Assembly: GCF_000312485.1 (NCBI RefSeq)
Contig: NZ_HE997646.1
Location: 1 to 64,000 of the forward strand
Source of the DNA: Yersinia massiliensis CCUG 53443
Lineage (GTDB): Bacteria; Pseudomonadota; Gammaproteobacteria; Enterobacterales; Enterobacteriaceae
Reading direction: 5' to 3'
DNA: 64,000 nucleotides
Part shown: positions 3,644-36,594 of the stretch, piece after piece
Position numbering within the stretch: position 1 is the stretch's first letter
How the letters are laid out: every line of letters begins with the position of its first letter
Made by a program: the position numbers and the translations under genes
Notes under the pieces: generated by a model
Told to the model about the DNA's origin: nothing
The model's input: the letters and a program-made list of their open reading frames with translations, nothing else
The model's database searches: none

Positions 3644-3656
3644 AAAACGAATTGGG

Positions 3657-3685: not shown

Positions 3686-3739
3686 GCAATTTAAAACCCT
3701 TTAATTTAGCGCCTCTCAGACAATTTAATGAAGTCAGTC

Positions 3740-3754: not shown

Positions 3755-3781
3755 TTGTCTACTTGAGCATTATCATAAGGT

Positions 3782-4255
3782 TTAAATGTTTTTCCTGTGC
3801 ATACCATCAGTATCAATTTCTGCCGAATAATCCCCTGCACAAACCCATTCCTCAACCCTGTCTAAAAGCTGCAGGGGAGAGAGTTTTAGTCTACCTTTTA
3901 TCGCACACTCCCAGATAATCATTACATGCCAGCCACCATCCCTGAGCTTTTCATAGACATTTTTATCCCGCACAACGTTTTTCCCAATTTTTTCCATCCA
4001 AAAATCAGTTCTCGTGGCAGGTGGTTTGAACAGATGGCAGTCATGCTTATGCCAAAAACAGCCATGAGTGAAAATTATTTTTCTATATTGTTCAATAACA
4101 AAATCAGGTTTTCCGGGCAATTCTTTTACCTGTGTTTGAAATTCAAATCCAAGATCTCCAAGCATAGTATTTAGCTTAAGTTCAATCTGCGTATCATGAT
4201 TACGGATCGCCTTCATATTCTTACTGCGGATCTCAGGACTATGAACATCAGCCAT
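3782..4255 (-). CDS. vsr: Very short patch repair endonuclease Vsr
   Basis: 157 residues, the usual Vsr length. It nicks 5' of the mismatched T in T:G pairs arising by deamination of 5-methylcytosine. Visible residues match E. coli Vsr in register: D51 in LPGKPDFV, then THGCFWHKHDC with C66, H69, H71 and C73 (metal and zinc ligands), and PATRTDFW. It is transcribed away from the HNH gene and serves the Dcm-like methyltransferase 1.2 kb on, since Vsr usually accompanies a C5-methyltransferase. Convincing assignment. Confidence 0.93.
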   Translation of the reverse strand: MADVHSPEIRSKNMKAIRNHDTQIELKLNTMLGDLGFEFQTQVKELPGKPDFVIEQYRKIIFTHGCFWHKHDCHLFKPPATRTDFWMEKIGKNVVRDKNVYEKLRDGGWHVMIIWECAIKGRLKLSPLQLLDRVEEWVCAGDYSAEIDTDGMHRKNI

Positions 4256-4497
4256 AAAAACTCCAATAATCAGATAAAATCTATAACATACTGATTTAAA
4301 TAGGTATTAAAACCACTAACACTCACTATAAGTCCGTTGTATATCATCCCTTCACTTTTCTCAGACATTATAGATTAAAGAGTGTGTGTATAAAAATCAC
4401 ACAAGCTAACTCTCTTTAAAGATCACACAGAAGAGGCTAGAATTATCAACAGATATTTAGATTCATAAAAATAAACTATAAAACAAGGAGATGTAGT

Positions 4498-5373: not shown

Positions 5374-5421
5374 ATTTGTATGTATAAATTACAAAAACAG
5401 CTTTCAAAATTATTAACAGCA

Positions 5422-5456
5422 CATACATCTGAAAGCTTGAAACTTTCAGATGTATG
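5422..5456. terminator. Bidirectional terminator between convergent HNH and methyltransferase genes
   Basis: Perfect 14-bp inverted repeat CATACATCTGAAAG / CTTTCAGATGTATG with a 7-nt loop, placed between two convergent stop codons. T-runs are modest, so efficiency is uncertain. Confidence 0.6.
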
Positions 5457-5482
5457 ATTAGCAATTACATATCAATTAATTA

Positions 5483-6817: not shown

Positions 6818-6881
6818 TACTTATCCGGTTTCTGTCCTGGTAATCATAGCGCTGTACAAAAACACATGCAATGGATAATTT

Positions 6882-8297: not shown

Positions 8298-8316
8298 TCT
8301 TTTCGGAGTTAATAAG

Positions 8317-9630
8317 TTGAAAAATTTAACATTTTATAACGACCGAATGAATGTGAATAAGATCCCAACCTCTTTGAGCTCTTTTCTGGTATCAAAAGGT
8401 ATTATCACTGACGATGACATAAATGTTCATTTCGTCGGGTTGGTATATTTTAAAAACAGACCATATATTTTCTTACCAAGAAACAGCGGCATTAGTGACA
8501 TTGAAAATTTATCTGTTACTGATAAAGAAGGTATAGCCAGAGATCTTTTAAACGCAATTCATATATACCAACAGTCACCAAAAAACCTTGTCAAAAATGA
8601 CGACTCTGGTGAAGGCTTTGTCGGAGAAAAAAGCCTAAGCCTGATCATTTCTCTTCTGGAGGATTTCAATCTTAACGGGTTATACAAACGCCGCACAAAT
8701 AGAAAAACAATTAATTCAGGGAAAATAAACTGGAAAAAGACTATTCGTTCATTCTCCCCATACCCTACTGATGATGCGCCGTTTTATCTTGATTTAGAGG
8801 GAACAGAGAAGAGAACTGAATCTGATAATGAGATATCACGAATTCACTCGAAAATAATTAGGGGTATAAGCACAGATTTAGGCTGGCTTACTTACTCAGA
8901 TAATTCTTATTATGAAAATACACTGAATTCCATACGTCATTCTGAAATGGATGTTGACGGACAGCTAGCCATTATTAAAAAAGAGCTGGAAAACACATAC
9001 ACTGAAAGAAATATTTTTTTATTAAACTCCATTTATCAGTATCTTCTAGATGCAAGTGGTAAAGAAAGCAACAATTTAATTACAGGCATAAAAGAATTTC
9101 ATGGAATGTGGGAGCATATGCTTGGAAAGGTAATAGATAATAAAATATATATAAATCATAGGCTAACAGCCCCTGTGTATAAGATATCAGATGAATATAT
9201 ACTTGCATCGTCCAGAGGGCATAAGACGGATATTGTTATCAAAGAAAGTAATACTAATAGATTTATAATTATTGATGCCAAATATTATAAAGCTAGCAAC
9301 ATCCATGATGCTCCAGGATTATCCGATATAGTGAAACAATTTTATTATGCAAAAGCGTTAGGTTTACTTGAAAATGACGCTGAAGATATAAGAAGTGTTT
9401 TCATTTTCCCCGGTAAAAGTGGATATATAGAATCCATACATATGGCATTCAAAAGCTCTAATAAGAAATACTCTTATGATGACTGCCTTGATGATCAATA
9501 TCCACTTATTTTATGTTTATATCAAGACCCAATAGAATTAGTTGGTTACTACTCTCATGGTAAAAAACTAAAAAAACTGACACAGGAAATAACAGATATC
9601 GGAACCAATAATGCTCCGATTTACTCATAG
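8317..9630 (+). CDS. McrC/LlaJI-R2-like PD-(D/E)XK endonuclease subunit
   Basis: 437 residues, TTG start at 8317 with CGGAGTT upstream, 19 bp after the ATPase gene, so co-translated. The C-terminal half has a PD-(D/E)XK-type core: D305 (KTDIVI) and IIDAKYYK with D320 and K322. The N-terminal part (VHFVGLVYFKNRPYIFLPRN) resembles the LlaJI/McrC N-terminal domain. Together with the upstream AAA+ protein it should form a motor-nuclease complex. Whether it cuts unmethylated sites (LlaJI-like) or methylated ones (McrBC-like) depends on the methyltransferase relationship. Confidence 0.8.
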   Translation: MKNLTFYNDRMNVNKIPTSLSSFLVSKGIITDDDINVHFVGLVYFKNRPYIFLPRNSGISDIENLSVTDKEGIARDLLNAIHIYQQSPKNLVKNDDSGEGFVGEKSLSLIISLLEDFNLNGLYKRRTNRKTINSGKINWKKTIRSFSPYPTDDAPFYLDLEGTEKRTESDNEISRIHSKIIRGISTDLGWLTYSDNSYYENTLNSIRHSEMDVDGQLAIIKKELENTYTERNIFLLNSIYQYLLDASGKESNNLITGIKEFHGMWEHMLGKVIDNKIYINHRLTAPVYKISDEYILASSRGHKTDIVIKESNTNRFIIIDAKYYKASNIHDAPGLSDIVKQFYYAKALGLLENDAEDIRSVFIFPGKSGYIESIHMAFKSSNKKYSYDDCLDDQYPLILCLYQDPIELVGYYSHGKKLKKLTQEITDIGTNNAPIYS

Positions 9631-9667
9631 TTCCATTATGTTTTTTGTTGATAAATATAGTTAAATT

Positions 9668-9694
9668 GGGTGATATAAATAGCCTGTATCACCC
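9668..9694 (+). terminator. Terminator-like hairpin after the nuclease gene
   Basis: GGGTGATA / TATCACCC inverted repeat with an 11-nt loop, followed by CTTTGCTT. It is placed 38 bp after the stop of the McrC-like gene; the T-run is weak. Confidence 0.4.
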
Positions 9695-9709
9695 CTTTGC
9701 TTCAATCTC

Positions 9710-9790
9710 CTACTTTACCAACTCCTGACGGGCAAGCTCTTTGAACCAGTTGCCAAGGCTGACACCTTCTTGTGTATATCCATACCGATA
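9710..9790 (-). pseudogene. C-terminal remnant of a small protein
   Basis: On the minus strand, a frame directly after an in-frame TAA reads YGYTQEGVSLGNWFKELA and on to RQELVK before a TAG. It looks like an amphipathic C-terminal helix of a small DNA-binding or antitoxin-like protein, but there is no start codon and no upstream part. Most likely a decayed fragment at the island's right edge. Confidence 0.35.
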
Positions 9791-9803
9791 TTAAGCTAAG
9801 CCT

Positions 9804-10031
9804 TTAAATAAAAGATTCTTTGATTAAATGTAAAGTATTTTGTAAAAAACACATCAATTTAGCCAGTATAACTTCAAGATCTCCATTTTCAGATTTAAAA
9901 AATAACGATCTCATCACTAACTCATGATAAAGCCGCTCAAGAGATATGTTTTCAAACTGATGATATGTATCGATATTCATCCATTTTTTGATTGTTTCAG
10001 TCTGGGTATCCGACCACTTTTTCATCACCAC
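9804..10031 (-). CDS. Small hypothetical protein (75 aa)
   Basis: 75 codons starting ATGGTGATGAAAAAG with GGAG nearby as possible ribosome-binding site. Sequence is helical (MKKWSDTQTETIKKWM ...), with no signal, TM or Cys cluster, and is AT-rich like the rest of the island. It lies between the restriction genes and the right attachment repeat. Coding status is uncertain; no family recognised. Confidence 0.4.
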   Translation of the reverse strand: MVMKKWSDTQTETIKKWMNIDTYHQFENISLERLYHELVMRSLFFKSENGDLEVILAKLMCFLQNTLHLIKESFI

Positions 10032-10225
10032 GCTCCGCTATGAATAAGCCCTTTGTGATAGCATAGTAACTATAAGCTTTTAGGCTTTTTCACCGGATTT
10101 TATGCGCCTAAAATGATTATTTAAAACTCAAATTCATCCGTTGGTATAAATGTTGGGATTCTTTATGAATAAAAAATAAAATTTTCTTTTAAATCATTTG
10201 AATACTTATACATTTGTTTCCTTCT

Positions 10226-10240
10226 GGGGACACCATAACC
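10226..10240. repeat. Attachment-site core copy 2 (right boundary of the defence cargo)
   Basis: Identical 15-mer to 3740-3754 (GGGGACACCATAACC); flanking bases differ on both sides. It closes a segment of about 6.5 kb that has defence genes but no recombinase gene. To its right the chromosomal torYZ terminator and genes begin. The rest of the 408-bp gap 10032-10439 shows no ORF beyond this repeat and the terminator at 10342. Exact sharing of a 15-mer in tRNA 3'-end sequence is unlikely by chance and implies a second integration event at the same site. Confidence 0.7.
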
Positions 10241-10341
10241 GCTTCTCATCGTGTCTCGTTCAGATTCAAATCACTTAAAAATCAAATAAAGACCAGATAG
10301 GTCAAAACCTCACTCATTTGAAACCATGTCAAAATTTAGCC

Positions 10342-10392
10342 ATAAAAAAACTGCACCCTAGCTGTTGGGCATCCAACATTTGGGGTGCAGTT
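10342..10392 (-). terminator. Terminator of the torYZ operon
   Basis: AACTGCACCC (10349-10358) and GGGTGCAGTT (10383-10392) pair perfectly; on the minus strand the hairpin is followed by a run of seven T. A second palindrome TGCGATCG / CGATCGCA lies at 10402-10428, between it and the torZ stop. Confidence 0.75.
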
Positions 10393-10439
10393 CAGCGGTA
10401 TTGCGATCGGTAATCAATAGCGATCGCAGTGTTTCGGTT

Positions 10440-19373: not shown

Positions 19374-20447
19374 ATGAATAAAAACCGGATATCAAAAATT
19401 CTGTTTGGTGTCATGGCCTTTGTTGGCACCATTACATTGATTCCTGCAGCACAAGCATGTACCAGAGCAGTGTATCTAGGGCCGGAAGATTTAGTGATAA
19501 CAGCAAGGTCGATGGATTGGAAAGAAGACCTGCATTCCGATTTGTGGATATTCCCGCGAGGAATGGAACGTACAGGTAATGCTGGACCAAACTCCGTAGT
19601 CTGGACATCAAAATATGGCAGCGTGATCACCGCAGCCTACAATATCGCCAGCACTGACGGTATGAATGAAAAGGGTTTAGTGGTGAACATGTTGTGGTTA
19701 GCTGAATCTCAATATCCAACGCCAGCCCCAGATAAGCCTAACCTTTCACTGGCTGCTTGGGGACAATATGTTCTCGATAATTTTGCCACTGTCGATGAAG
19801 CTGTTAAGACATTAAAAAATGAACCTATTTCCGTATTAACCAGTAAAGTACCGGGTCAAGAAAGGCTGGGGACCATTCATCTCACGCTTTCCGATCCCAG
19901 CGGAGATAGTGCTGTATTTGAATACATTGATGGAAAACTGACGATTCATCACAGCCGAGAGTACCAAGTTGTCACTAACTCGCCGACCTATGACAAACAA
20001 TTAGCCATTGATTCATATTGGCAAAGAATTGGTGGTACTAACATGCTACCGGGCACCAACAGCTCCAGCGATCGTTTTGTTCGGGCACAGTTTTATATTA
20101 ATGCGATCCCAAAATATACGGATAAGCAATTGGCCACAGCAAGTGTGCTGAGTGTTATTCGTTCTGTTTCTGTTCCTTATGGTATCAGTACCCCTGATGA
20201 ACCAAATATTTCTTCCACCCGTTGGAGAACACTCTCGGATCAGAAAAATAAGATTTACTATTTTGAATCCACTCTAATGCCAAATACATTTTGGGTCGAC
20301 TTTAACAAAGTTGATTTTTCAAAATCTGCTGAAGTTAAAAAACTGAAGATAAATACGCCTCAAGCAATTCAGTATACCGGTGATGTTTCTGCACATTTTC
20401 AACCTGCGAAACCCTTTGTATTTGAACCTGTAACACCTTCAGTATAA
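19374..20447 (+). CDS. Secreted Ntn hydrolase, choloylglycine hydrolase / penicillin V acylase family
   Basis: 357 residues. A 28-residue signal peptide ends AAQA, leaving C29 as the mature N terminus and the catalytic nucleophile of this Ntn family. Other family signs are ARSMDWKED (early Arg/Asp), NEKGL, and NSPTYDKQL. Gram-negative members hydrolyse bile salt conjugates poorly and often cleave penicillin V or long-chain acyl-homoserine lactones, so substrate is open. It starts 60 bp after evgS on the same strand and could be in the EvgAS regulon or operon. A strong terminator follows. Confidence 0.82.
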   Translation: MNKNRISKILFGVMAFVGTITLIPAAQACTRAVYLGPEDLVITARSMDWKEDLHSDLWIFPRGMERTGNAGPNSVVWTSKYGSVITAAYNIASTDGMNEKGLVVNMLWLAESQYPTPAPDKPNLSLAAWGQYVLDNFATVDEAVKTLKNEPISVLTSKVPGQERLGTIHLTLSDPSGDSAVFEYIDGKLTIHHSREYQVVTNSPTYDKQLAIDSYWQRIGGTNMLPGTNSSSDRFVRAQFYINAIPKYTDKQLATASVLSVIRSVSVPYGISTPDEPNISSTRWRTLSDQKNKIYYFESTLMPNTFWVDFNKVDFSKSAEVKKLKINTPQAIQYTGDVSAHFQPAKPFVFEPVTPSV

Positions 20448-24284: not shown

Positions 24285-25685
24285 TTATCCGTGGTTAAAA
24301 CCACTCGCTTCTTCTTCAGTCAGAGGTTTCGTGACTGGGTGGTTTTTGAAATAGTCTAGCGCTCTTTTAATATCATCAATCAACAGGCTTCCGAGGTCGT
24401 AGCTCACCCCATGACGCACCAGAATACGCTGGATAACCAAATCTTCTCGGTTCGCCGGCATGGAATAGGCTGGGACCTGCCAACCGCGAGAGCGTAACTT
24501 ATCGGCCAAGTCATAAAGGTTATATCCACCTAACGCCGCATTATCTTTCAGCTTCCATGCTAATGCTGGGATCCCTTTACTGCTGTCACCATCAAACAGC
24601 ATTTCAAATGGCCCAATATTGCCAATTTCCTCAGCCAAATACTGGGCAGTGGCATAGCAAGCATTATGGATTTTTGCGTACCCTTCACGGCCCAGACGCA
24701 AGAAATTGTAGTACTGCGCAATGATCTGGCCTCCGGGGCGCGAGAAGTTCAGCGCAAAGGTGGGCATGTTGCCGCCAAGGTAATTGACGTTGAAAATGAG
24801 ATCTTCAGGTAAATCAGAGGCTTCACGCCATACAACCCAGCCAGCCCCGAGTGGCGCCAAACCAAATTTATGGCCGGAAGTATTGATAGATTTTACTCTC
24901 GGCAAACGGAAATCCCACTCCAGTTCTGGCGCGCAGAATGGCGCAAGGAAGCCGCCGCTCGCGCCGTCAATATGCATAGGAATATCTAGGCCGGTATCTT
25001 TTTGCAGCTTATCAAGTGCATCACAAACCGCTTTAACCGGTTCGTACTGACAAGTAAAGGTGACGCCAAGTGTCGGCACCACACCGATGGTGTTTTCATC
25101 AACACGCTTGAGCACCTCTTCTGGGCTCATGATCAAACGGTCACCTTCTAACGGAATTTCACGCAATTCAACATCAAAGTAACGGGCAAATTTATGCCAA
25201 CAAATCTGTACTGGCCCACAAATCATGTTCGGTTTATCGGTCGGCAGCCCTTTCGCAGCACGCTTATTTCGCCATTGCCATTTTAATGCTAGCCCTCCTA
25301 ACATCGCGGCTTCAGAGGAGCCAATAGTGGAGCAACCCAAGGTCGTTTCTGGTGTTGGGGAGTTCCACAGATCAGCCAGCATTCGCACGCATCGTGCTTC
25401 AATTTCTGCTGTTTGCGGATATTCATCTTTATCGATCATGTTCTTATCGATCGACAAATCCATTAGTTCACGAATTTCGTCATCGACCCATGTTTGGCAA
25501 AAAGTGGCCAGATTTTGACGAGAATTACCGTCTAACATCAGTTCATCACGAATAGCGCTAAATACATTGCGCGCATTACGTTCTTTCGCTGGGAAAGTAG
25601 ATTTAGGCATCGATTTCGCTAAATCAATAGAAGCATACACATCATCGTTTTCATTGTAGTTAGTAAATACGTTATTTTTATCCAT
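24285..25685 (-). CDS. gadB: Glutamate decarboxylase GadB
   Basis: 466 residues as in E. coli GadA/B. A PLP lysine is in [11 protein letters not shown] (K273 here), with the family's HIDGASGGF and [13 protein letters not shown] motifs. The penultimate residue is His (GFNHG), as needed for the pH-dependent C-terminal autoinhibition. The N-terminal acidic/TM-association segment is also present. Decarboxylates glutamate, consuming a proton; its product GABA leaves through GadC encoded 103 bp downstream. SD CTTAAGG before the ATG. Confidence 0.95.
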
Positions 25686-26189
25686 GATCTCACCCTTAAG
25701 GAGAATGTATTAAATATTAATGTATTGACTGATACGATCCGAAAAAATTATCTTTCTTTCAGAACGATGTGGCAGGATTTCATTTTTAGCCTACACAATC
25801 ATTGATGACTCTTTATGCTAGCTACAGAGTCATGTTCAACAACATTAAATGTATTACAAAAAGCTCAGAATGCCAGAATTCTTACTCATTTTGAGGTATT
25901 TTAATTTAACCAACTGTTTTTAATCATTTATTTTATTGAATTTTATTATCCATAACACGGATTAATTCTATTGGTGAAAATGTCATTTGTTACGTAATAG
26001 TAAAAGTTTTCAAATAATTAAATTAATAAAAAATTCACCGAAAACGCTAAAAACAAATGATTTACAATCGTCATCATCAGGAAAGTCATCATATTTGTTA
26101 TGTTTTTTATTGATACCAAGTACAGGGAATATGGTAGTGTGCTTCTCTATCCTATATTTTTTATCGTCTATCAATAATCAGAAGAAACC
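25686..26189. other. AT-rich divergent spacer upstream of gadB
   Basis: About 500 bp between gadB and a divergent methyltransferase gene. It must carry the gadB promoter. No GadE box or other operator could be recognised with confidence. An apparent ORF from 25987 overlaps the downstream gene in another frame and is not supported. Confidence 0.5.
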
Positions 26190-26846
26190 ATGGATAATTC
26201 ACTACAAAAAGTTGCTGAACAATTACGTTGCCCAGATGGGGAGGACGGAAAAGCCTTAGGCCATATCATGAACATGCGTAATCTCCCTGTGATCATGAGC
26301 GGCATTCATCAGCTTTGTCTGAGTGAGGGTGATCATCTGCTTGAGTTGGGATACGGCAATGGCGGGTTGTTAGGTTATATTCTTTCTTTGGCCGAGAACC
26401 TCCACTATACCGGTTTGGAGTTTTCGCCATTAATGCATCACGAAGCTTTGGGCTTTAATCATCCGTATATTCAAGCGGGCTGGGCAGATTACCGTTTGTA
26501 CGATGGCGTAACACTTCCGCTAGCCGATGCCACTGTCGATAAAGTGTTAACCGTCAATACGATATATTTTTGGCAGCAACCTGATGCATTACTCAAAGAG
26601 ATCTGTCGAGTGTTGACCGTTGGTGGGCTTTTCTGTGTGACGTTTTGCGATAAAGCTTTCATGGCGAAACTGCCTTTTGTCGAGCATGGATTTCAATTGT
26701 ATAGCGAGTCAGAAGTGCGCGCCTTAATGGCGAATTTGCCGTTAAAACTGCATGCGCAAGAGCGCAAAAAAGATAAAAGTATCAGTAAAACAGGCGAGAT
26801 CGTTGACCGTGAGTTCATCAGTTTGGTATTCGAACGAACAGCTTAA
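26190..26846 (+). CDS. Class I SAM-dependent methyltransferase
   Basis: 218 residues. Motif I reads LLELGYGNGGLLG (about 50-62), then an acidic end of beta2 (TGLEFSP), and a post-motif hydrophobic strand (VDKVLTVNTIYFW). Similar to small-molecule methyltransferases of the Methyltransf_11 type. The target is unknown. Lies alone between gadB and yjdM; I have no evidence that it belongs to the lyase/P450 locus, which starts 0.85 kb on. Confidence 0.75.
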   Translation: MDNSLQKVAEQLRCPDGEDGKALGHIMNMRNLPVIMSGIHQLCLSEGDHLLELGYGNGGLLGYILSLAENLHYTGLEFSPLMHHEALGFNHPYIQAGWADYRLYDGVTLPLADATVDKVLTVNTIYFWQQPDALLKEICRVLTVGGLFCVTFCDKAFMAKLPFVEHGFQLYSESEVRALMANLPLKLHAQERKKDKSISKTGEIVDREFISLVFERTA

Positions 26847-27116
26847 TCAGACACATCCCTACATTTAGGCTAATTCCACACCTAAAGAGACGATTAGCCA
26901 TCAAACTTAAATATTTTAATTTATTGAAAAATAAAAATATTAAGTAAAAATTCAATATATCATTCAAAGCAAAATCATCAGCTACGGCAAGCTTTATACC
27001 CTAGTTCGCTTTCCAATAACCTGATAAAAAGTGTAAAATAGGCCCCCATCAAAGCACCAATCAATTTTTTATCACTTTTTTATATTTATTGAATTTAATT
27101 TCAAGAGGTTATAGAG

Positions 27117-27455
27117 ATGAGTTTACCAAACTGTCCAAAGTGCAATTCTGAATTTACATGGCAGGACGGGGAAAAACTAAATTGCCCAGAGTGCGGAAAT
27201 GAGTGGTCAGAAAACACGGCTTCATCCGCTGATGAAGAAGGTCTAGTGGTACGTGATGCCAATGGTAACCTGCTAGCTGACGGCGACTCAGTCACCGTAG
27301 TCAAAGATCTGAAAGTAAAAGGCAGCTCTTCAACGCTGAAAATTGGCACTAAAGTGAAAAGCATTCGCTTGGTTGAAGGTGACCACAATATCGATTGTAA
27401 AATTGATGGTTTTGGTCAGATGAAGCTCAAGTCTGAGTTTGTTAAAAAGAGCTAA
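27117..27455 (+). CDS. yjdM: PhnA/YjdM-family zinc-ribbon protein
   Basis: 112 residues. N-terminal zinc ribbon [10 protein letters not shown] ... CPECGNEW, then a beta-rich domain ([20 protein letters not shown]) typical of YjdM, formerly PhnA. Despite the old name it is not a proven phosphonate enzyme. Well-formed ribosome-binding site (AAGAGGT). Single-gene unit. Confidence 0.9.
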
Positions 27456-27474
27456 TGGCCTAAGTCTGCCTTTT

Positions 27475-27532
27475 GCCCCCTGTAGAGTGACAATATTCTC
27501 TGTAGCTTAGGAGATTCACTTGCATTGGGGGC
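27475..27532. repeat. ERIC-like palindromic element
   Basis: Nested inverted repeat of 58 bp: outer GCCCCC / GGGGGC, then AGTGA / TCACT and TCTC / GAGA. On the minus strand it contains GTGAATCTCCTAAGCT, close to the core of enterobacterial ERIC elements (GTGAATCCCCAGGAGCTT). Probably a truncated or divergent ERIC; transcription would form a hairpin at the yjdM 3' end. Confidence 0.45.
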
Positions 27533-27699
27533 CGTTCGTTCCACACCTCACTTAGTAGCGATTCTGTGCCTATGCCAACCTCCGCATAGTCGTCAGATAC
27601 AACACAATCTATTCGTCACCAGTCAAAACACAAAATGAGTGTGAGACACCGAGCAAAAAAATCCGGTAGATAACATAGTAAGCCATGAAAAACATTACG

Positions 27700-29013
27700 T
27701 TATAGATAATGCATGTCTTGTGCATCAGTATTGATTAACTTATTTATAAAATCTGTCTTATCCATCAACTTGCAGTTTTTGATCACTTTCCTAGAATAAT
27801 GCAACTGGACCATTGCTTCTTTGAATGAAATAAATTTTAGGATTAATGCATGCTTTAGTCCTAGTTTAGTCGATATCTTATCCGAGAAGAAATAGACCAA
27901 TCCGCCGCCTGTTAATGCTCTATCGTGTTCAATCGAACTAATAAATGAATATTTTTTTAGCATAAGTCTTACTAGGGTGGCTGCAATATTATGCGAGAAT
28001 TTCTTTGCAGGACACATTCTTGAACCTGCGCCGAATGGCATATAGCAGTCATCTAATTGATCGCGTTCTAACCATCTATCTGGATCATATAAATTTGGAT
28101 GTTCAAATCCTTTCTCATGGCAAGCTAAAAAATCAAAAATCATGTTAATTCCTTCAGGTATAATCACTCCATGACTAGTATGATATTCGTGCTCTGCTAT
28201 CCTATTTGTAATACCAAATAGTGGATATAATCTTAATGTTTCATCAAGTATCCTTTTTATTAAGTCATTATCATTCATATTTTCTTTAAGTCTAACTTGA
28301 AAATTAACATTCTGCGATAAAGCGACAATAGTATGAGCGATAAATTCTGATATTTGAATGACTCCCGTATGAAAGAATACGCCCATAATTAATTTCGCAA
28401 CTATCTCTTGGCTTACACCAATGGATTTTTTTGATTTTAAATCGTAAATCACATCTAAATCACATTGAGAGCGTATATATCTTAAAACTGTTTCCCTCAC
28501 CTCAACATCTGGAAAAGAAATAAATGAAATAGTTTCTTTAAAAGAAATGACATTTTTACTTAGCAACTCCAATATTTCATTTGAACATGGTTGGCCAAAT
28601 ATTTTAATATGAAAAAACTCTACCATTATAGTGATAATTTCATTTCTTATGATTGAAACTCCCGATTCCTTATCATTAAAGAATTGAAACCCTCTTCTTT
28701 TAAAAACATCATAAAGTATACTATCCATCTCATCTTGAGAAACAACCAACATTGGTTGAATGATTTTTTTAAGCTCCTTATATAACTCCCCGACTTCCAT
28801 ATTTTCCACATGACAATCAACTGGAGAATGAAAATACTCTATTAGCTTTCTAGTGACATCTTTCCCTTTATATTGATTATCCCTAAGCAGAGATTTAATT
28901 TCATGGCCCGTTACATTTTCATACGGTAAAAGAATAAAATCTTCACCTCCCCTGAAAATCTCATCCCTTCTTATTTTTGCCTCTGACTTTAATTTTCTAT
29001 AAATCCACCTCAT
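27700..29013 (-). CDS. Cytochrome P450 with atypical I helix
   Basis: 437 residues; no N-terminal membrane anchor, so soluble. ExxR is DETLRLYPLFG, a PERF-like segment is DPDRWLE, and the haem loop is PFGAGSRMCPAKKF with ligand C334. The I-helix position that normally reads AGxxT appears as TGVIQ, so the acid/alcohol pair for O2 activation looks lost. Shine-Dalgarno AAGGTGG. It lies 156 bp downstream of, and on the same strand as, two tryptophanase-like genes. Codon use is AT-rich, unlike the flanking core genes, suggesting transfer. Substrate unknown. Confidence 0.85.
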   Translation of the reverse strand: MRWIYRKLKSEAKIRRDEIFRGGEDFILLPYENVTGHEIKSLLRDNQYKGKDVTRKLIEYFHSPVDCHVENMEVGELYKELKKIIQPMLVVSQDEMDSILYDVFKRRGFQFFNDKESGVSIIRNEIITIMVEFFHIKIFGQPCSNEILELLSKNVISFKETISFISFPDVEVRETVLRYIRSQCDLDVIYDLKSKKSIGVSQEIVAKLIMGVFFHTGVIQISEFIAHTIVALSQNVNFQVRLKENMNDNDLIKRILDETLRLYPLFGITNRIAEHEYHTSHGVIIPEGINMIFDFLACHEKGFEHPNLYDPDRWLERDQLDDCYMPFGAGSRMCPAKKFSHNIAATLVRLMLKKYSFISSIEHDRALTGGGLVYFFSDKISTKLGLKHALILKFISFKEAMVQLHYSRKVIKNCKLMDKTDFINKLINTDAQDMHYL

Positions 29014-29168
29014 ACACCACCTTCTTATGGCACATATAAGCGCATTTCTGAGAGATTTGTGACATATTATTTTATTTAGGATTTAACAATCCTTAAATAA
29101 AAAATGATTTAACATTACCTGCTTAATCAACACTCATCATTAGCTCAATCTACTTACAGTGAACTAAA

Positions 29169-30638
29169 TTAAGGAAGTGGTGAGACAGGCTCATAATCAT
29201 CAAAGAATGTATGTAAACCGATTTCACTTAACTCCAGCGGTGGCCGATCATCTACAATTGGCTTAAATGCTGGAAGTTTGTCTCCCCATTCTATCGCTCT
29301 AAAAAGGCACTCGGCAGCCCAGTCATAATGTGGTTCATAATAAGTTCGCCGAGGTATTGCGCATCGTATTAACTCATAAGGTGCTTTTATTCGCTTACTT
29401 GAATCCTGCGGATTATTGGCATCAATACGGCCTCGTTGTAATGAATCCATTGCCGTAGAAGCAAACCCTCCTTCAATGTAAGCTTGTGCAGATAAGCAGG
29501 TGGCAGGTCCCTGAGTATGGTCTAAATGGGGTAAACATTTCCCCGCATTAATATAAACGGCGAAGCAGCTGGCTGGTTCCAAAATATGTATTCCTCGCTT
29601 CTGGCAAGCATTAGCAAAATAATCAACTTGTCTCTGTCGGTCTTGAAGATAGTAATCATTAACGCCCTCGATTAACCCAACCGCTAGAGATTCCAAATCA
29701 CGGCCAGCTAGACCGCCATAAGTAATAAATCCATCAGTACGAATGACCTTTGGATGCATTCTCTGCCAAAATATCTTATTTCTAAGCGCAATAAAACCGC
29801 CCATATTCACTAAGCCGCCTTTTTTTGCACTCATATGGCATCCATCTGCGTAGGAGAGCATTTCATTTACGATACCCAAACAACTTTTATCTTTATACCC
29901 AGGTTCATGACTCTTTATTATCCAAGCATTTTCAGATATGCGTGCTATATCTAAATAAAGCTGGGTATCAATTTTATTATACTTATCAATTATTGCTCTG
30001 ACATTTTTGATATTTTCCATTGATACAGCTTGCCCACCATTTAAGTTATTTGGAACGACTAACTCTACTAGTGGTATTTTTTCGGCATATTCAATAAAGT
30101 AATCCTCAAATTTTTCTAAATTCATATTCCCTTTGAACCAACTATAGTTTTCCTCATCCAGATAGTCGGGACATATTAGGTCTACCGGCTCAGCTCCCCG
30201 CTGAAACGCCCAAGTGCTGGTAGTCGTAAAGTGTGTATTGGAGGGTACTTTGTCACCAGGCTTTACAAAAATCTCATAAATTGGTGCTTCAGCAGAGCGA
30301 CCTTGATGTGAAGGAATAATGTATGGCATTTTAGTAAATGCTTGGCACGTCTCCTCGAAAATTTCGTAACTACGGCAATTGAAATAAGATTCATCACCTT
30401 CCATCATCGCCGACCACTGCCTGTCACTTAATGCCCCAGTGCCAGAATCAGTGACCATATTGATAAAAACATATTTCGCCGGCAATAGTCGGCCAGAATA
30501 GCCGTACTCTTGCATGATTTCTTTTCTTTTTTCTCGCGTTGTCGGAATACTATATTCGACCGCTTTTATTCGATAAGGGGGGGCTTTATCAAATGGCAGA
30601 TCGGTTTCCCGCAACATATCTTCATTACTGATTCTCAT
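29169..30638 (-). CDS. Tryptophanase/tyrosine phenol-lyase-like PLP enzyme, paralogue B
   Basis: 489 residues from the ATG at 30638, whose Shine-Dalgarno GAGGAGG contains an earlier in-frame ATG (30653) that I reject. Beta-eliminating-lyase fold: TDSGTGALSD, HQGRSAE, GGQAVSMENI, D230 and R233 (LDIARISENAW), PLP lysine K273 in MSAKKGGLVNMGG, and TYGGLAGRD. Co-linear without gaps with paralogue A for at least the first 280 residues, but the TTTRAH segment is TTTSTW (141-143). The Arg of TPL that reads the ring (R381) seems to be Ser (SMDSL-like context). Substrate unknown. Confidence 0.85.
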   Translation of the reverse strand: MRISNEDMLRETDLPFDKAPPYRIKAVEYSIPTTREKRKEIMQEYGYSGRLLPAKYVFINMVTDSGTGALSDRQWSAMMEGDESYFNCRSYEIFEETCQAFTKMPYIIPSHQGRSAEAPIYEIFVKPGDKVPSNTHFTTTSTWAFQRGAEPVDLICPDYLDEENYSWFKGNMNLEKFEDYFIEYAEKIPLVELVVPNNLNGGQAVSMENIKNVRAIIDKYNKIDTQLYLDIARISENAWIIKSHEPGYKDKSCLGIVNEMLSYADGCHMSAKKGGLVNMGGFIALRNKIFWQRMHPKVIRTDGFITYGGLAGRDLESLAVGLIEGVNDYYLQDRQRQVDYFANACQKRGIHILEPASCFAVYINAGKCLPHLDHTQGPATCLSAQAYIEGGFASTAMDSLQRGRIDANNPQDSSKRIKAPYELIRCAIPRRTYYEPHYDWAAECLFRAIEWGDKLPAFKPIVDDRPPLELSEIGLHTFFDDYEPVSPLP

Positions 30639-30662
30639 TTTACGCCTCCTCATTAGTGAGAG

Positions 30663-32138
30663 TTATGGGTGATCAAATAAGGGCTCATATTCATCAAAAA
30701 AAGCCCTAAGTCCGATATCCCTTTTTTCTAGAGGGGGCCTAAGCTGATTCATTTTCTGGCGGACGTAAGGCGGAATTTTGTTCCCCCAGTTCATTGCGCG
30801 ATAAAGCGACTCGGCACACCACTCATAGTGGGAGTCCATATATACCCGCCGAGGAAATGCACATCGAATTAATTCATAGGGTGCCAACTGAATTTTTTGA
30901 ATATTAGTCGGGTCACTACTATCTTCTCTTCCCCGATGCAGTGAGTCCATAGAGGTAAAACCAACCCCACCTTCAATGTAAGCTTGCACACACAGTGCTG
31001 TACCGGGCCCGTGCTGCTTTTCTATATGTGGCAAACAATGCTCTGCAAGAATCCAAATACCCAATGTGCAAGCTGGGTTAAATGTTGCAATGCCCCTCTC
31101 TTTACACGCCTTCGCAAAAAAATCACACTGCCTTTGCTTATCTTCTAGATAATAATCGTTGACTCCCTCCATTAATCCTATGGCTAACGCTTCTAAATCA
31201 CGACCAGCAAGCCCACCATAAGTTATAAATCCATCAATACGAATGAGCTTTGGTTGAAGCCGCTGATAATCTATTTTATTTCTTAATGCAACAAAGCCCC
31301 CCATATTGACAAGGCCAGCCTTTTTAGCGCTCATATGAGTAACATCAGCAAAAGACATCATTTCTTGAACGATTTCCAGACAAGTTTTATCTCCATAACC
31401 AGCCTCATGTTTTTTTATAATCCAGGCATTTTCGGAAATTCTTGCGGCATCTAATGAAAAAATCACATTTCTGCGGCTGTAATTATCAATGATCTGACGA
31501 ACTTCACGAATATTCGCCATTGAAACTGGCTGACCGGCGCATAAGTTATTTGGAACGACCAATTCAACTAAGCCGATCCGATCACCTTGTTCAATAAATA
31601 GTTTCTTTAATTTTTCCGTATCAATATTCCCTTTAAACCATGAAGAATTATGTTCATCAAAATACTCAGGACAAGTCAGGTCAATAGGCTCGGCCTGCTG
31701 GTAATAGCAGTGCGCTCTGGTAGTAGTAAAATGGCAATTAGATGGAACAAGATCGCCATTATTGACAAAAAGCTCATAAATAATAGCTTCTCCTGACCTT
31801 CCTTGATGACAGGGCATGACATATTCCATCCCTGTGAATTTTTGTAAAACTTCTTTAAGTGGGTCCCAGCTCTTTGAATTAAAATAAGACTCATCTCCTA
31901 GCCACATCGCAGCCCACTGTCTGTCGCTCATAGCATTTGTGCCAGAATCAGTACACATATTGACATAGATATATTCAGCGGGAAGGTTAGGTGCTGACCA
32001 GTTGTACCTTTTAATCAACTCTTTTCTTTCCGCACGCGTAGTCGGCATGCTGTACTCCACGACTTTCACCCGATAGGGGGGCACTTTGTCAAAAGGGATA
32101 TCGGTTGATGCCATCATTTCTTCATTGGATATTCTCAT
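30663..32138 (-). CDS. Tryptophanase/tyrosine phenol-lyase-like PLP enzyme, paralogue A
   Basis: 491 residues, SD AAAGGTG. Visible motifs: TDSGTNAMSD, CHQGRSGEA, TTTRAH (138-143), AGQPVSMAN, D230/R233 (LDAARISENAW), K272-K273 (MSAKKAGLVNMGG), TYGGLAGRD and FPRRVY. This retains the PLP-binding residues of tryptophanase and TPL, but is longer than either at the C terminus, with an ...EKRDIGLRAFFDEYEP tail shared with paralogue B. The TPL ring-binding Arg is not conserved. It probably catalyses elimination or its reverse on an aromatic or related amino acid. First gene of an operon with paralogue B and probably the P450. Confidence 0.87.
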   Translation of the reverse strand: MRISNEEMMASTDIPFDKVPPYRVKVVEYSMPTTRAERKELIKRYNWSAPNLPAEYIYVNMCTDSGTNAMSDRQWAAMWLGDESYFNSKSWDPLKEVLQKFTGMEYVMPCHQGRSGEAIIYELFVNNGDLVPSNCHFTTTRAHCYYQQAEPIDLTCPEYFDEHNSSWFKGNIDTEKLKKLFIEQGDRIGLVELVVPNNLCAGQPVSMANIREVRQIIDNYSRRNVIFSLDAARISENAWIIKKHEAGYGDKTCLEIVQEMMSFADVTHMSAKKAGLVNMGGFVALRNKIDYQRLQPKLIRIDGFITYGGLAGRDLEALAIGLMEGVNDYYLEDKQRQCDFFAKACKERGIATFNPACTLGIWILAEHCLPHIEKQHGPGTALCVQAYIEGGVGFTSMDSLHRGREDSSDPTNIQKIQLAPYELIRCAFPRRVYMDSHYEWCAESLYRAMNWGNKIPPYVRQKMNQLRPPLEKRDIGLRAFFDEYEPLFDHP

Positions 32139-33055
32139 AATTCATTTCACCTTTGATTTCTAAGTAATTTCAGGTTTGAGTCAAAGTTTCCATCTTGATA
32201 AAGAAATGCTTAATCTCTCGTTGCATCAACAATATCCAAAATATATATCTCACATAAATAACTATAAATGATTACATATATACTTATCACACAATTAATT
32301 AAAGTCGTTAATTACATTGGAATTTTTTTGTACCACACCCGCATTCACAATTATTAATTTTGAATAATGAAATTGTCACTTTAATTATTTTAGCGCACTG
32401 ACAAAATAGCCAAAAAGCAATTGAAAGTGCAATAATTAGCATAGTATCGAATCTTTAAGTGTCAAATATAACTGAAGTGAAAATCACAAAAACCGCATAA
32501 ATTAATAAATAAGTTAGATATTTTTATCTATAAAAATATGAAACTCTCTAACTCACTAAGACTGTAAAACACTGCCCAACTTCACCATGGATATTAAAAT
32601 GATACAGTCAATCTCAGTATCAATATTAAGCCATGTTTTTCATCAGAAAAACCTAAACATTGATAATAACCTTAATGTTCATGGTAATTTTATATTCATA
32701 TCAATTATTAGACAATTAATCACTTTAACTAATTAATAAATTAAGAAGATATAAGCCATTATACTTTATGACGCTGTATTCCATCGGGAAAAATTTAATG
32801 GATATCATATTCCCTCACTATCATGATATTCATTATCAAAAAAAGCAGGTGCAACAACTTTGGCTATACTAAATTATCTCACCATACCAAAGCAAGATGT
32901 TGCCATGCTCTTGCAGAGTTCTCTACTCGGGAATAAACACCAGTTAGGAATATTATTATCAATAGAATAAATGGAGGATTATGACCAAGTTAACACATCT
33001 GCATTGGGAGCAAAAAAACATTCTTCTTTAAGAATAAGTCATTGAGGTAATTAAC
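32139..33055. other. AT-rich divergent control region of the lyase/methyltransferase locus
   Basis: About 0.9 kb, strongly AT-rich, between the lyase operon (minus) and the methyltransferase (plus). It must hold both promoters. Apart from one short candidate ORF (32981-33031), I see no gene. Base composition suggests H-NS-type silencing, an inference. Confidence 0.5.
32981..33031 (+). CDS. Possible 16-residue leader peptide
   Basis: ATG at 32981 with a perfect GGAGG six bases upstream; the frame reads MTKLTHLHWEQKNILL then TAA, 24 bp before the methyltransferase ATG. Such a strong ribosome-binding site on so short a frame suggests a leader peptide or a tiny secreted/precursor peptide. A second frame at 32971 (24 codons) overlaps it. 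Low confidence. Confidence 0.3.
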   Translation: MTKLTHLHWEQKNILL

Positions 33056-33844
33056 ATGAGTCAAGATGAAAATTATGGCGACACTCTATTTTGTCAGGAA
33101 ATTGCTGACGAAATGTATCGCCTAGAACTGGTTTCAAAAACCTACGATTTCATTAGCCAACGTCAAATATCCACACTCATTACGCAGCCTGATATGCGTT
33201 GTCTGGATATAGGTTCAGGTACTGGGAGTATGGCAAAATGGTTATCTGAACAGCCTAAGGTAAAAGAAGTTGTTGCGCTTGACAGATTCGTGAATTTATT
33301 AGAAAAAAAACTAACCATTTCAGAAAAGTTACATATTGTACAACACGATTTGAATAGTGATGATTATACTGGCGAGTTTGATCTTATCAATATTCGTTTT
33401 GTTCTTATGCATCTAAGAGATAGGGAGAAAATATTAAATAAAATATCCTCATGGTTAAAACCAAGTGGATGGTTGATTGTCTCTGATGTTATTGATTTAT
33501 CGCCTGAAGAGGTGGATGACCCCCTTTATAGAAAAATCATGTCAACGATGTGGCAAGTTCTCATTGATTCCATTGGTACTGATAAAAATTGGTCTCACAA
33601 ATTAAATTTACAATTTCAATATCTTGGCTATAGAAATATAACGAATGAAGTTTATCTACCACCAATTAGTAAAGATTCCCCTATGGCTGAATTTTGGTGT
33701 CTTACTTGGCGAGCCATGCATGATCGTTTGTTAGAAATGAGCGATCTAGATGAAAGAACTTTAACAGATGCTGAAAATAGGCTGATTCAGGGAGAGATGG
33801 TGGCTTTATCGCCAGGCATGATGACTTGCATTGGTCAAAAGTAA
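33056..33844 (+). CDS. Class I SAM-dependent methyltransferase of the lyase/P450 locus
   Basis: 262 residues. Motif I is CLDIGSGTGSMAKWL (about 49-63), then VVALDRF at the acidic beta2 end, FDLINIRFVLMHL and the post-I strand SGWLIVSDVID, so a Methyltransf_11/25-like small-molecule methyltransferase. SD GAGGT. It is divergent from the lyase operon across a shared AT-rich control region and is AT-rich itself; I infer that it methylates a product of that pathway. No substrate domain is recognisable. Confidence 0.75.
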   Translation: MSQDENYGDTLFCQEIADEMYRLELVSKTYDFISQRQISTLITQPDMRCLDIGSGTGSMAKWLSEQPKVKEVVALDRFVNLLEKKLTISEKLHIVQHDLNSDDYTGEFDLINIRFVLMHLRDREKILNKISSWLKPSGWLIVSDVIDLSPEEVDDPLYRKIMSTMWQVLIDSIGTDKNWSHKLNLQFQYLGYRNITNEVYLPPISKDSPMAEFWCLTWRAMHDRLLEMSDLDERTLTDAENRLIQGEMVALSPGMMTCIGQK

Positions 33845-34003
33845 GATTTTGCTTTATACGGCTAATGGCGCAGCACAATCAGTGATGTCCTTATAGGAAG
33901 CCTTAACCAGTGCTCATTCATTAAGTTAACCTATTGATAAAAGGTTACTTAGGTATTTATTGCTGCCCTTCTTAACCATAAACTCTCCCGCACAATTCAT
34001 TTA

Positions 34004-34087
34004 GATATATCTTTTTTGACTTCCCCTCTTGCAAACTTCGATATATCGATCTAGATTAGATATATCGAAATTATTTCGATATATCTA
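34004..34087. promoter_or_regulatory. Operator array of GATATATC palindromes upstream of the PadR gene
   Basis: Four GATATATC palindromes begin at 34004, 34040, 34059 and 34078; the last three are spaced exactly 19 bp. The last two sit in a perfect 14-bp inverted repeat (TAGATATATCGAAA / TTTCGATATATCTA, 34057-34087) ending four bases before the Shine-Dalgarno AAGGAG. PadR-family proteins bind AT-rich palindromes of this kind, so autoregulation is the simplest reading. Confidence 0.65.
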
Positions 34088-34100
34088 AAGGAGATAAATT

Positions 34101-34766
34101 ATGTTTGGATTTTCAAAACGTGGTCACAGCCACTGTGGCGAACATCGGGAAGAACACCACCGCAGCGGTGAAAGAATGCATCGTGGTGGTCGTCACCCAA
34201 TGGCCGGTAAGGGCCCGGAAGCAGGCAGAGGTGGGCGGCATGGTCGTGGTGAGAAGATGCAACGGCTGTTTGAGCACGGTGATTTACGTGTTGTCTTGTT
34301 GGCGCTACTGGATAAAAAACCCAGCCATGGCTATGAGCTCATTAAAGCAATCGAAGAGGCTTCTTCAGGACTGTATGTGCCAAGCCCAGGCGTTATCTAC
34401 CCGACGCTGACACTGCTTGAAGAGCAAGATTTTGTCACCCCTGTTGCCACCGGCAATGGCCGTAAGAGCTACCAAATTACCGATGCTGGTAAGGTTGAGT
34501 TACAACAAAATCAAGCCATGGTTGATGTCATCTTTTCTCGACTGGCGCAGGTCAATCGCCGTCCTGAAGGGAATCTCGCTGAAGGCATTTCTGATGTGAT
34601 GCACCGTTTACGTCATATTTTGCGCAGTAACATGGTGCGTTCAGACGTGACACCAGAGCAGGTACTCCGCATTAATGCCGCGTTAATGACCGCAGTAGAA
34701 GCCATTGAGAAAGAGTTAACACAACAATCGACAGACGCAACGACGGATGAACAGGAGAAAAACTGA
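34101..34766 (+). CDS. PadR-family regulator with His-rich N terminus (YqjI-like)
   Basis: 221 residues. The first 50 residues are rich in His, Gly and Arg (GHSHCGEHREEHH ...), a metal-binding-like tail, followed by a PadR winged helix (HGDLRVVLLALL ... PSHGYELIKAIEE ... YVPSPGVIYPTL) and a helical dimerisation part. This layout matches E. coli YqjI, an iron/nickel-responsive PadR repressor. Here the neighbour is a DUF3861 gene rather than yqjH. Its stop overlaps the next start (TGATG). Likely binds the upstream GATATATC array. Confidence 0.85.
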   Translation: MFGFSKRGHSHCGEHREEHHRSGERMHRGGRHPMAGKGPEAGRGGRHGRGEKMQRLFEHGDLRVVLLALLDKKPSHGYELIKAIEEASSGLYVPSPGVIYPTLTLLEEQDFVTPVATGNGRKSYQITDAGKVELQQNQAMVDVIFSRLAQVNRRPEGNLAEGISDVMHRLRHILRSNMVRSDVTPEQVLRINAALMTAVEAIEKELTQQSTDATTDEQEKN

Positions 34767-35080
34767 TGCCCGGCTATCGTTATCGAATCACCATTGAGCC
34801 TATGACTGACCGTAAAGGTGAGCCGATTGATAAAGCCCCTGTCACATTTGAAGCCGAGAATCATGATGAGATCCTCGGCATCATCGAGCGGTTACAGGCG
34901 CGCGAAGATCTGGATTTTGGCAAAGAGAAAACAGCGGCCTTCGCTTTGGGGCTGAAGTTATTCTCAGAAACCATGATGGAGAACCGCAAACATCCCTTAT
35001 TCGCGCCGCTTCGTACTGCGTTTACTGAATTTATGATGCTGTTGAAAAAAGGGCCATCTCACGATCGTCACGAGCCCTAA
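34766..35080 (+). CDS. DUF3861-family protein (104 aa)
   Basis: Starts in a TGATG overlap with the PadR gene, so the two are co-translated. Sequence (GYRYRITIEPMTDRKG ... FAFALGLKLFSE-like, then HPLFAPLRTAFTEFMMLLKK) fits DUF3861, small cytoplasmic proteins of unknown function, often next to regulators. One beta-sheet half and one helical half; no cysteines. Function unknown. Confidence 0.75.
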   Translation: MPGYRYRITIEPMTDRKGEPIDKAPVTFEAENHDEILGIIERLQAREDLDFGKEKTAAFALGLKLFSETMMENRKHPLFAPLRTAFTEFMMLLKKGPSHDRHEP

Positions 35081-35112
35081 AATCGAAAAGGCCATTGTTA
35101 TGCGTGATGAGA

Positions 35113-35142
35113 TGGGAATATCGTTTATCGAGGATATTCCCA
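35113..35142. terminator. Terminator between convergent DUF3861 and ascB genes
   Basis: Perfect 10-bp stem TGGGAATATC / GATATTCCCA with a 10-nt loop, followed by GCATTTTT on the plus strand. Confidence 0.7.
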
Positions 35143-35148
35143 GCATTT

Positions 35149-36594
<1,446 letters not shown>

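What the first reader, a model, noticed from the sequence alone, without database searches (positions are those of the whole stretch)
27700..33844. Possible undescribed pathway: tandem tryptophanase/TPL-like lyases, P450 and methyltransferase
Two tryptophanase-fold enzymes (491 and 489 aa, co-linear), a soluble P450 on the same strand and a divergent SAM methyltransferase share a 0.9-kb AT-rich control region. The lyases keep PLP residues but have lost the ring-binding Arg of TPL, and the P450 has an unusual I helix. I know no described cluster of this composition. A plausible output is an oxidised and O- or N-methylated aromatic or related amino-acid product made by elimination or reverse lyase addition.
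Basis: partly seen in the sequence, partly recalled or inferred. Interest (0 to 1): 0.85.

Follow-up and report, generated by a model that had tools for sequence, protein, structure and literature searches.

The report
Mobile four-gene paired-lyase pathway cassette
Four neighbouring genes (two related vitamin-B6-dependent lyases of an unstudied type, an oxidising P450 and a methyltransferase) sit together as one inserted block and recur together in two other enteric-type bacteria, so they probably serve one pathway for a small molecule that is still unknown.

Summary
In detail: P450 (27700-29013 -), lyase B (29169-30653 -), lyase A (30663-32138 -), methyltransferase (33056-33844 +). They behave as one unit. 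The closest same-genus genome has both flanks at 96-97% identity around an empty site; the window carries these four genes as a 6.46-kb insert (27541-33998). The set recurs in Pantoea allii (intact, at another place) and in an unnamed Enterobacteriaceae genome, G707 (lyases recombined into one A/B chimera, P450 split over two frames). The lyases are neither tyrosine phenol-lyases nor tryptophanases by curated scores and specificity residues: A and B form their own clade, occur in tandem in 8 of 8 intact loci, and keep the catalytic PLP residues. In six anaerobe loci the pair stands without P450 or methyltransferase, near a YheO-type regulator (5 of 6) and transporters: apparently an amino-acid beta-lyase system. 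In enterics it was joined to a P450 whose two distant relatives lie beside adenylating or NRPS-like genes. Best reading: a mobile minimal metabolite cassette around a paired beta-lyase. Substrate, direction and product are unknown; an aromatic product is unsupported. Structure prediction could not be completed.

The parts
27541..33998 (.). whole inserted cassette; in the closest relative about 115 unrelated bases stand instead; no ORF of 100 aa or more in it besides the four genes
   Evidence: G024 aligns to window 24664-27540 (96.3%) and 33999-36208 (97.0%)
27700..29013 (-). cytochrome P450, 437 aa, no N-terminal membrane anchor by eye; ExxR at 258-261, heme loop PFGAGSRMCPA, I helix VFFHT
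   Evidence: PF00067; 47% to P. allii, 64 and 66% to the two G707 pieces
29169..30653 (-). lyase B (TPL/tryptophanase superfamily, new clade), 494 aa, or 489 aa from 30638
   Evidence: PF01212 and PRK13238; 77-87% to seven B homologues
30663..32138 (-). lyase A, 491 aa, 60% identical to B; first gene of the three-gene co-linear group
   Evidence: PF01212 and PRK13238; 76-82% to seven A homologues
32139..33055 (.). AT-rich divergent intergenic region, presumed to hold promoters of both sides; not conserved in sequence
33056..33844 (+). SAM-dependent methyltransferase, 262 aa, divergent here and in G707, co-linear in P. allii
   Evidence: PF13489 and others; 52% to P. allii, 83% to G707

Best explanation
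A horizontally acquired four-gene pathway cassette. Its core is a pair of PLP lyases (A and B) of a third clade of the tyrosine phenol-lyase/tryptophanase family; the pair is encoded in tandem wherever it was found intact, so the two probably work together, perhaps as one mixed tetramer (inferred). Lys257-bound PLP takes up an L-amino acid, Tyr71 and Arg100 assist, and the beta-substituent leaves, giving a free leaving group XH plus aminoacrylate, which becomes pyruvate and ammonia (mechanism by homology). XH is probably neither phenol nor indole but something that fits a pocket without Arg381 and with Ala/Thr at Phe448. In anaerobes this looks like amino-acid use: the pair stands near importers and a YheO-type regulator. 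In enteric bacteria the same pair would feed XH to a P450 with an altered I helix and to a methyltransferase, giving a small oxidised and methylated metabolite. Shown: gene content, pairing, catalytic residues, the separate clade, the insertion, recurrence of the set. Inferred: joint action, direction, order of steps, and that the end product is a secondary metabolite.
For: Clean insertion: flanks at 96-97% in G024 around an empty site; by my count the two flank genes lie within 1.4 kb of each other in 18 of the 24 other genus genomes, too close for the cassette (in 3 they are apart or on different contigs, in 3 only the left flank was found). Same four genes, intact, in P. allii and a recombined copy in G707. 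P450 at E<=1e-20: 3 of 392 family genomes, 2 of them (own, G707) in the cassette; lyase at E<=1e-140: 2 of 392, the same two. A and B: each one clade (99/98 and 99/96), together 100/100; pairwise distances of A and B correlate at r=0.99 over 28 non-independent pairs; tandem order A-B with 24-101 bp between them in 8 of 8 intact loci. Purifying selection: methyltransferase vs G707 pN 0.09, pS 0.63; A and B vs P. allii pN 0.11 and 0.09, pS saturated. Anaerobe context within the fetched stretches: YheO-type regulator in 5 of 6 loci, Opp/Nik-type binding protein in 3 of 6, sodium symporter in 2 of 6. P450 relatives next to an NRPS-like gene (L035, by eye) and an adenylating enzyme (L053, Pfam).
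Against: No substrate, product or expression data. No transporter, pathway regulator or redox partner lies in the cassette. Between window and P. allii the P450 (47%) and methyltransferase (52%) are much less alike than the lyases (82 and 87%): faster change, or separate recruitment. The chimera in G707 is open over its whole length, so a single lyase chain might suffice (though its P450 is split, or the sequence has an error). The spirochaete row groups differently in the A and B halves of the tree, on unstarred branches. The order of steps is a guess: oxidation could precede elimination, or the lyases could run in reverse. Only three cassette copies were found here. The tree tool warns that long branches meet, so how the new clade relates to TPL and TIL is unsure. 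No structural model was obtained.
Confidence: 0.45

Rival explanations
1. Same cassette, reverse chemistry: the paired lyases build a beta-substituted alanine from pyruvate, ammonia and a nucleophile, or swap the beta-substituent of a cysteine- or serine-like amino acid, and the P450 and methyltransferase then decorate this unusual amino acid.
For: TPL is used to make L-DOPA from pyruvate and a phenol (abstract in listing, PMC7508748) and TIL elimination is called reversible (abstract in listing, PMC11301627). The cassette holds no importer, unlike the anaerobe loci. P450 relatives stand beside adenylating genes.
Against: The setting of the pair in anaerobes, near importers and a YheO-type regulator, points to elimination. 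Nothing shows which way the reaction runs in the cell.
Confidence: 0.3
2. Breakdown or detoxification: the pair cleaves an amino acid met in plants, soil or gut, for carbon and nitrogen, and the P450 and methyltransferase only make the leaving group harmless.
For: The lyase pair belongs to apparently catabolic loci in 6 of 7 fetched relatives. One cassette carrier, P. allii, is an onion pathogen also isolated from other plants and rainwater (abstract in listing, PMC12873547); onion is a source of cysteine sulfoxides (recalled).
Against: P450 plus methyltransferase is an unusual outfit for simple catabolism; no importer; the P450 kin lie beside adenylating or NRPS-like genes. The lyase is very rare: 2 of 392 family genomes.
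Confidence: 0.15
3. Chance neighbours: a horizontally acquired lyase pair with unrelated P450 and methyltransferase genes beside it.
For: GC differs between genes: P450 32%, methyltransferase 36%, lyases 41-42%, so the block is probably of mixed origin. The lyases occur without the other two in six anaerobe loci. The P450 and methyltransferase are less conserved than the lyases.
Against: The same set is found at three different genomic places, with the methyltransferase kept although its orientation differs, and one copy is a clean insert of just these genes.
Confidence: 0.06
4. P450-modified ribosomal peptide: the 16-residue reading frame at 32981-33031 just upstream of the methyltransferase would be the precursor (or a leader peptide).
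For: A GGAGG stands three bases before its ATG and the frame holds His and Trp. The best NCBIfam model for the P450 is the RiPP P450 ApyO, although at 50.5 bits against a cut-off of 525.
Against: No similar frame was found upstream of the methyltransferase in G707 or P. allii; lyases acting on free amino acids have no obvious place in it.
Confidence: 0.03

Closest known systems
Tyrosine phenol-lyase (TPL)
   Same: PLP fold family and catalytic residues (Tyr71, Arg100, Asn185, Asp214, Arg217, Lys257, Arg404) and Thr124; a P. ananatis TPL is 35.7% identical to lyase A.
   Different: Arg381 is Met in 16 of 16; Phe448 is Ala (3) or Thr (13); Met288 is Phe (9) or Tyr (7); Met379 is Thr in 16 of 16; 357-381 bits against a TPL model cut-off of 720.7; encoded as a tandem pair.
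Tryptophanase / tryptophan indole-lyase (TnaA, TIL)
   Same: Subfamily model PRK13238 passed (445-449 bits, cut-off 285); no Arg at position 381; Phe at 288 in 8 of 8 A and 1 of 8 B.
   Different: The position of indole-binding Asp137 is Thr, His463 is Ala/Thr, Val394 is Thr and Ile396 is Met in 16 of 16; 287-308 bits against the TnaA cut-off of 825.8. The genome has a separate TnaA-type gene on another contig.
Actinomycete indole-prenyltransferase clusters of Type A (6-dimethylallylindole-3-carbaldehyde)
   Same: A tryptophanase inside a small metabolite cluster (PMC3617294, passages; they also mention neighbouring conservons, some with a P450). A Streptomyces gene annotated tryptophanase beside a prenyltransferase was also met here.
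   Different: One tryptophanase, a prenyltransferase instead of a methyltransferase, no lyase pair.
Aetokthonotoxin pathway
   Same: P450 (AetB) joins two indole units in a five-enzyme pathway (PMC10224044, passages); that it includes a tryptophanase, AetE, is recalled.
   Different: Brominated indole nitrile chemistry; no paired lyases and no methyltransferase (recalled).
Beta-eliminating lyase domains of PKS/NRPS lines (leinamycin LnmJ type)
   Same: Arg381 missing, in natural-product settings (PMC3870968, passages); weak hit to solved structure 9cen, named polyketide synthase protein (E=5e-6 with B, 7e-4 with A).
   Different: Those are embedded domains in which the Tyr71 counterpart is replaced as well; here both enzymes are free-standing and keep Tyr71.

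Membership tests
Beta_elim_lyase / tryptophanase-TPL superfamily | Pfam PF01212 and NCBIfam PRK13238 above cut-off | tested here: met
   168-170 bits vs 27 and 445-449 bits vs 285
Tyrosine phenol-lyase | TIGR02618 equivalog score at least 720.7 | tested here: not met
   380.8 (B) and 356.8 (A)
Tyrosine phenol-lyase | Specificity residues Thr124, Met288, Met379, Arg381, Phe448 (list from PMC5805759, passages) | tested here: not met
   Thr124 kept 16 of 16; the other four replaced in 16 of 16; the 448 position lies near an alignment gap
Tryptophanase (TIL) | TIGR02617 score at least 825.8, or NF053783 at least 750 | tested here: not met
   308.3 (B)/286.6 (A) and 389.0 (B)/392.8 (A) bits
Tryptophanase (TIL) | Asp137, Phe304, Val394, Ile396, His463 (PMC5805759, passages) | tested here: not met
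   Only the Phe is kept, in 8 of 8 A and 1 of 8 B; the other four replaced in 16 of 16
PLP beta-lyase activity | Catalytic Lys, PLP-binding Asp and Asn, carboxylate Arg, Tyr71 | tested here: met
   Residues present in 16 of 16 sequences; activity itself not testable here
Heteromeric A/B lyase | Physical complex of both chains | not testable with these tools
   Only indirect: tandem in 8 of 8 intact loci, correlated distances; no model was obtained
Cytochrome P450 | PF00067, ExxR, Cys heme loop | tested here: met
   65.8 bits vs 22.8; ETLR 258-261; PFGAGSRMC
Cytochrome P450, classical oxygen activation | Acid-Thr pair (AGxD/ET) in the I helix | tested here: not met
   V/A-F-F-H-T; Thr kept, acid replaced (placement by spacing only; motif recalled)
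ApyO-type RiPP P450 | NF050147 score at least 525 | tested here: not met
   50.5 bits
P450-RiPP cluster | Conserved precursor peptide gene | tested here: not met
   16-aa frame has no counterpart upstream of the methyltransferase in G707 or P. allii
Mobile genetic island with own transfer genes | Integrase, transposase, att site or terminal repeats | tested here: not met
   No further ORF of 100 aa or more in the insert; no terminal inverted repeat of 18 bases or more; no target duplication seen by eye

The most novel reading that the evidence does not exclude
The pair is the first heteromeric member of the tyrosine phenol-lyase/tryptophanase family, specific for an amino acid that no studied member cleaves; enteric bacteria took it over from anaerobic amino-acid degraders and, with an acid-less P450 and a methyltransferase, turned it into a mobile minimal pathway for a new class of small metabolite.
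Probability: 0.25. Interest if true: 0.8.

Novelty: new variant of a known kind. Interest (0 to 1): 0.6.

Why it matters
TPL and tryptophanase are textbook enzymes with two known specificities; a third clade with a different specificity code, encoded as a pair, gives a direct test of how substrate choice evolves in this fold and whether it can work as a mixed complex. The enteric cassette is small, cleanly bounded and present in at least one named, cultured species (Pantoea allii), so its product should be findable by ordinary comparative metabolomics.

Tried and rejected
Membership of TPL or TnaA: rejected by curated scores and specificity residues. Regulatory leader peptide or RiPP precursor at 32981: no counterpart in the sister cassettes. 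Conserved control region: only a few 10-base matches between window and G707. Plasmid origin: 59 plasmid records match lyase A at E<=1e-60, all under 60% identity, so no close copy; the DNA search finds only two short Cetobacterium matches. E. coli: 27541-31500 has no match in the collection of 5,426 genomes. Known clusters: full-text searches of open-access papers (listings) and passages of four papers gave no paired-lyase/P450/methyltransferase cluster; the P. allii genome paper's main text has 0 occurrences of tryptophanase, P450 or phenol-lyase. Host: all five phage records matching window 1-10400 are Yersinia enterocolitica phages, over 1824-3425, which hints at Yersinia but does not prove it; species not determined.

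So no fold search was made.

Limits: the contig scan looks for exact short peptides of lyase A and finds only close relatives; two of its nine loci (L011, L012) are about 40% tryptophanase-like genes and are not counted as members. Absence of genes around the anaerobe pairs refers to the fetched stretches only (10.6-21.5 kb), except for the P450, which was sought in whole genomes. Genome draws are samples of larger groups. Scripts read every FASTA file in the data folder, where alignment rows bear the same names as proteins, so a gapped copy may have been read; one search shows the two window lyases at 491 and 489 residues in the alignment used, and the only visible effect is a length of 439 instead of 437 for the P450.
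Full report
What is there. The window holds, on the minus strand, a 491-aa lyase A (30663-32138), a lyase B of 489-494 aa (29169-30653) and a 437-aa P450 (27700-29013), and divergently a 262-aa SAM methyltransferase (33056-33844). A and B are 60% identical.

One inserted unit. The closest same-genus genome, G024, matches the window at 96.3% over 24664-27540 and 97.0% over 33999-36208, with about 115 unrelated bases between the two matches; the window has 6458 bases there, in which the four genes are the only ORFs of 100 aa or more. All 25 genus genomes match the query of window 25700-35200; only the window's own genome matches through the insert. By my count, 18 of the other 24 have the two flank genes within 1.4 kb of each other, 3 have them apart or on different contigs and 3 show only the left flank. 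No target duplication was seen by eye and no terminal inverted repeat of 18 bases or more was found.

The set recurs. P. allii carries methyltransferase, A, B and P450 co-linearly (52, 82, 87 and 47% identity) at a different place on a 754-kb contig; its right flank reads by eye like a transposase remnant. Of 101 sites at which A and B share no residue, the G707 lyase is A-like at 33 of the 35 up to residue 225, neither at residues 243 and 249, and B-like at 61 of the 64 from residue 261 on, with no site reversed: a recombination between tandem A and B. In draws from the family the P450 was found in 3 of 392 genomes (own, G707, and G578 at 35%), the lyase in 2 of 392 (own, G707) and the methyltransferase in 3 of 246 (own, G707, and G547 at 29%); among 99 relatives the lyase was in 1, the own genome. 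In the genus of P. allii the lyase is in 1 of 61 genomes; in the genus of G707 the methyltransferase is in 1 of 4. Against close linkage: P450 and methyltransferase are much less alike between window and P. allii than the lyases are.

A third clade of lyases. A contig scan found nine loci; seven hold both A and B in tandem at 76-87%: P. allii, five clostridial-type MAGs and a spirochaete; two are about 40% tryptophanase-like genes. Draws around the anaerobe carriers added none: 2 of 398, 1 of 198 and 1 of 167 genomes, all already known. In a tree with 11 TPL/tryptophanase-type rows the 16 A and B sequences form one group (100/100, stem 1.4 changes per column), split into A (99/98) and B (99/96); the root is a midpoint and the tool warns that long branches meet, so the order of the clades is open; the spirochaete falls differently in A and B on unstarred branches. 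A and B distances run in parallel (r=0.99, 28 non-independent pairs), and 50 positions are invariant in the group and differ from all 11 others. The window's genome has a TnaA-type gene besides.

Active site. Using P. ananatis TPL numbering, Tyr71, Arg100, Asn185, Asp214, Arg217, Ser254, Lys257 and Arg404 are kept in 16 of 16. TIL and TPL differ at five active-site residues: Asp137/Thr124, Phe304/Met288, Val394/Met379, Ile396/Arg381, His463/Phe448 (PMC5805759, passages). The new group reads Thr (16), Phe (9) or Tyr (7), Thr (16), Met (16), Thr (13) or Ala (3): one residue shared with TPL, one with TIL in 9 of 16, three of its own; position 448 lies near an alignment gap. Substituting Arg381 in TPL impaired activity on Tyr but not on other substrates (PMC3870968, passages). 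In TIL, Asp133 contacts the ring nitrogen of a ligand and is bonded to His458, and a starred Tyr72 contacts the ligand (PMC11301627, passages; that it comes from the neighbour chain is recalled). A and B differ from each other at position 36 (Pro 3 or Cys 5 in A, Arg 8 in B) and 127 (Arg in A, Ser in B). So both look like working PLP lyases for something other than Tyr or Trp, and not like redundant copies.

Two settings. Of the seven genomes with fetched pairs only P. allii has a P450 like this one (1 of 7). In the anaerobe loci the pair lies near a YheO-type PAS/HTH regulator in 5 of 6 (in the sixth, L008, the stretch begins 863 bp before A), an Opp/Nik-type binding protein in 3 and a sodium:solute symporter in 2. 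This fits uptake and cleavage of an amino acid or small peptide. In the enteric cassettes these are absent and P450 plus methyltransferase stand in their place. The P450's two distant relatives stand directly after an NRPS-like gene (L035, by eye; P450 by Pfam) and after an adenylating enzyme (L053, Pfam; with one further ORF without a Pfam match between it and the P450); the G547 methyltransferase stands beside a terpene-synthase/P450 fusion. Against solved structures mostly the C-terminal part of the P450 aligns (about residues 250-364; 154-357 for aromatase). Its I helix, FF(H/V/T)T, lacks the usual acid. GC differs: P450 32%, methyltransferase 36%, lyases 41-42%, rest of the window 44%, so the cassette was probably put together from more than one source.

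How it most likely works. Shown: gene set, insertion, recurrence, pairing, purifying selection, catalytic residues. Inferred: A and B act together; an L-amino acid is cleaved; the leaving group is oxidised and methylated. The reverse (synthetic) direction is the main rival. I give 0.45 to the forward-cleavage pathway, 0.3 to the reverse, 0.15 to detoxification or breakdown.

Novelty. In the open-access searches made I found no report of this cluster or of paired lyases of this kind; the P. allii genome paper's main text does not mention tryptophanase, P450 or phenol-lyase. Nearest described kinds are tryptophanase-containing prenylindole clusters (PMC3617294, passages) and the aetokthonotoxin pathway (PMC10224044, passages; its tryptophanase recalled). 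It is a new variant of a known kind: known enzyme families, in a new clade and a new combination.

Noticed in passing
window 3782-9630: AT-rich restriction-modification island: Vsr endonuclease, C5 DNA methylase, AAA protein (McrB-like by eye) and LlaJI-type restriction protein (Pfam).
   Followed up: partly
window 1824-3425: About 89% identical to Yersinia enterocolitica phages in two pieces (methyltransferase genes): prophage remnant and the only hint at the host genus.
   Followed up: partly
L034 6367-7836: In-frame A/B lyase chimera formed by recombination between tandem paralogues; a natural test of whether one chain suffices.
   Followed up: yes
L035 1-10048: Repetitive NRPS-like gene with near-identical stretches (by eye) followed by a relative (35%) of the cassette P450.
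   Followed up: no
L048 191-3192: Terpene-synthase/P450 fusion beside a methyltransferase 29% identical to the cassette one.
   Followed up: no
L034 251-4415: SIR2-like and HerA-like gene pair (Pfam) and a short O-methyltransferase-family ORF, apparently truncated, next to the G707 cassette.
   Followed up: no
window 34049-34095: Inverted repeat (23-nt arms, 87%) just before the PadR-type (YqjI-like, by eye) gene; the 33-base core is kept in relatives; probable operator.
   Followed up: no
window 19374-20447: Choloylglycine-hydrolase-family protein (PF02275).
   Followed up: no
L004 14560-14860: Transposase-like remnant (by eye) beside the P. allii cassette, a possible trace of how it moved.
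   Followed up: no
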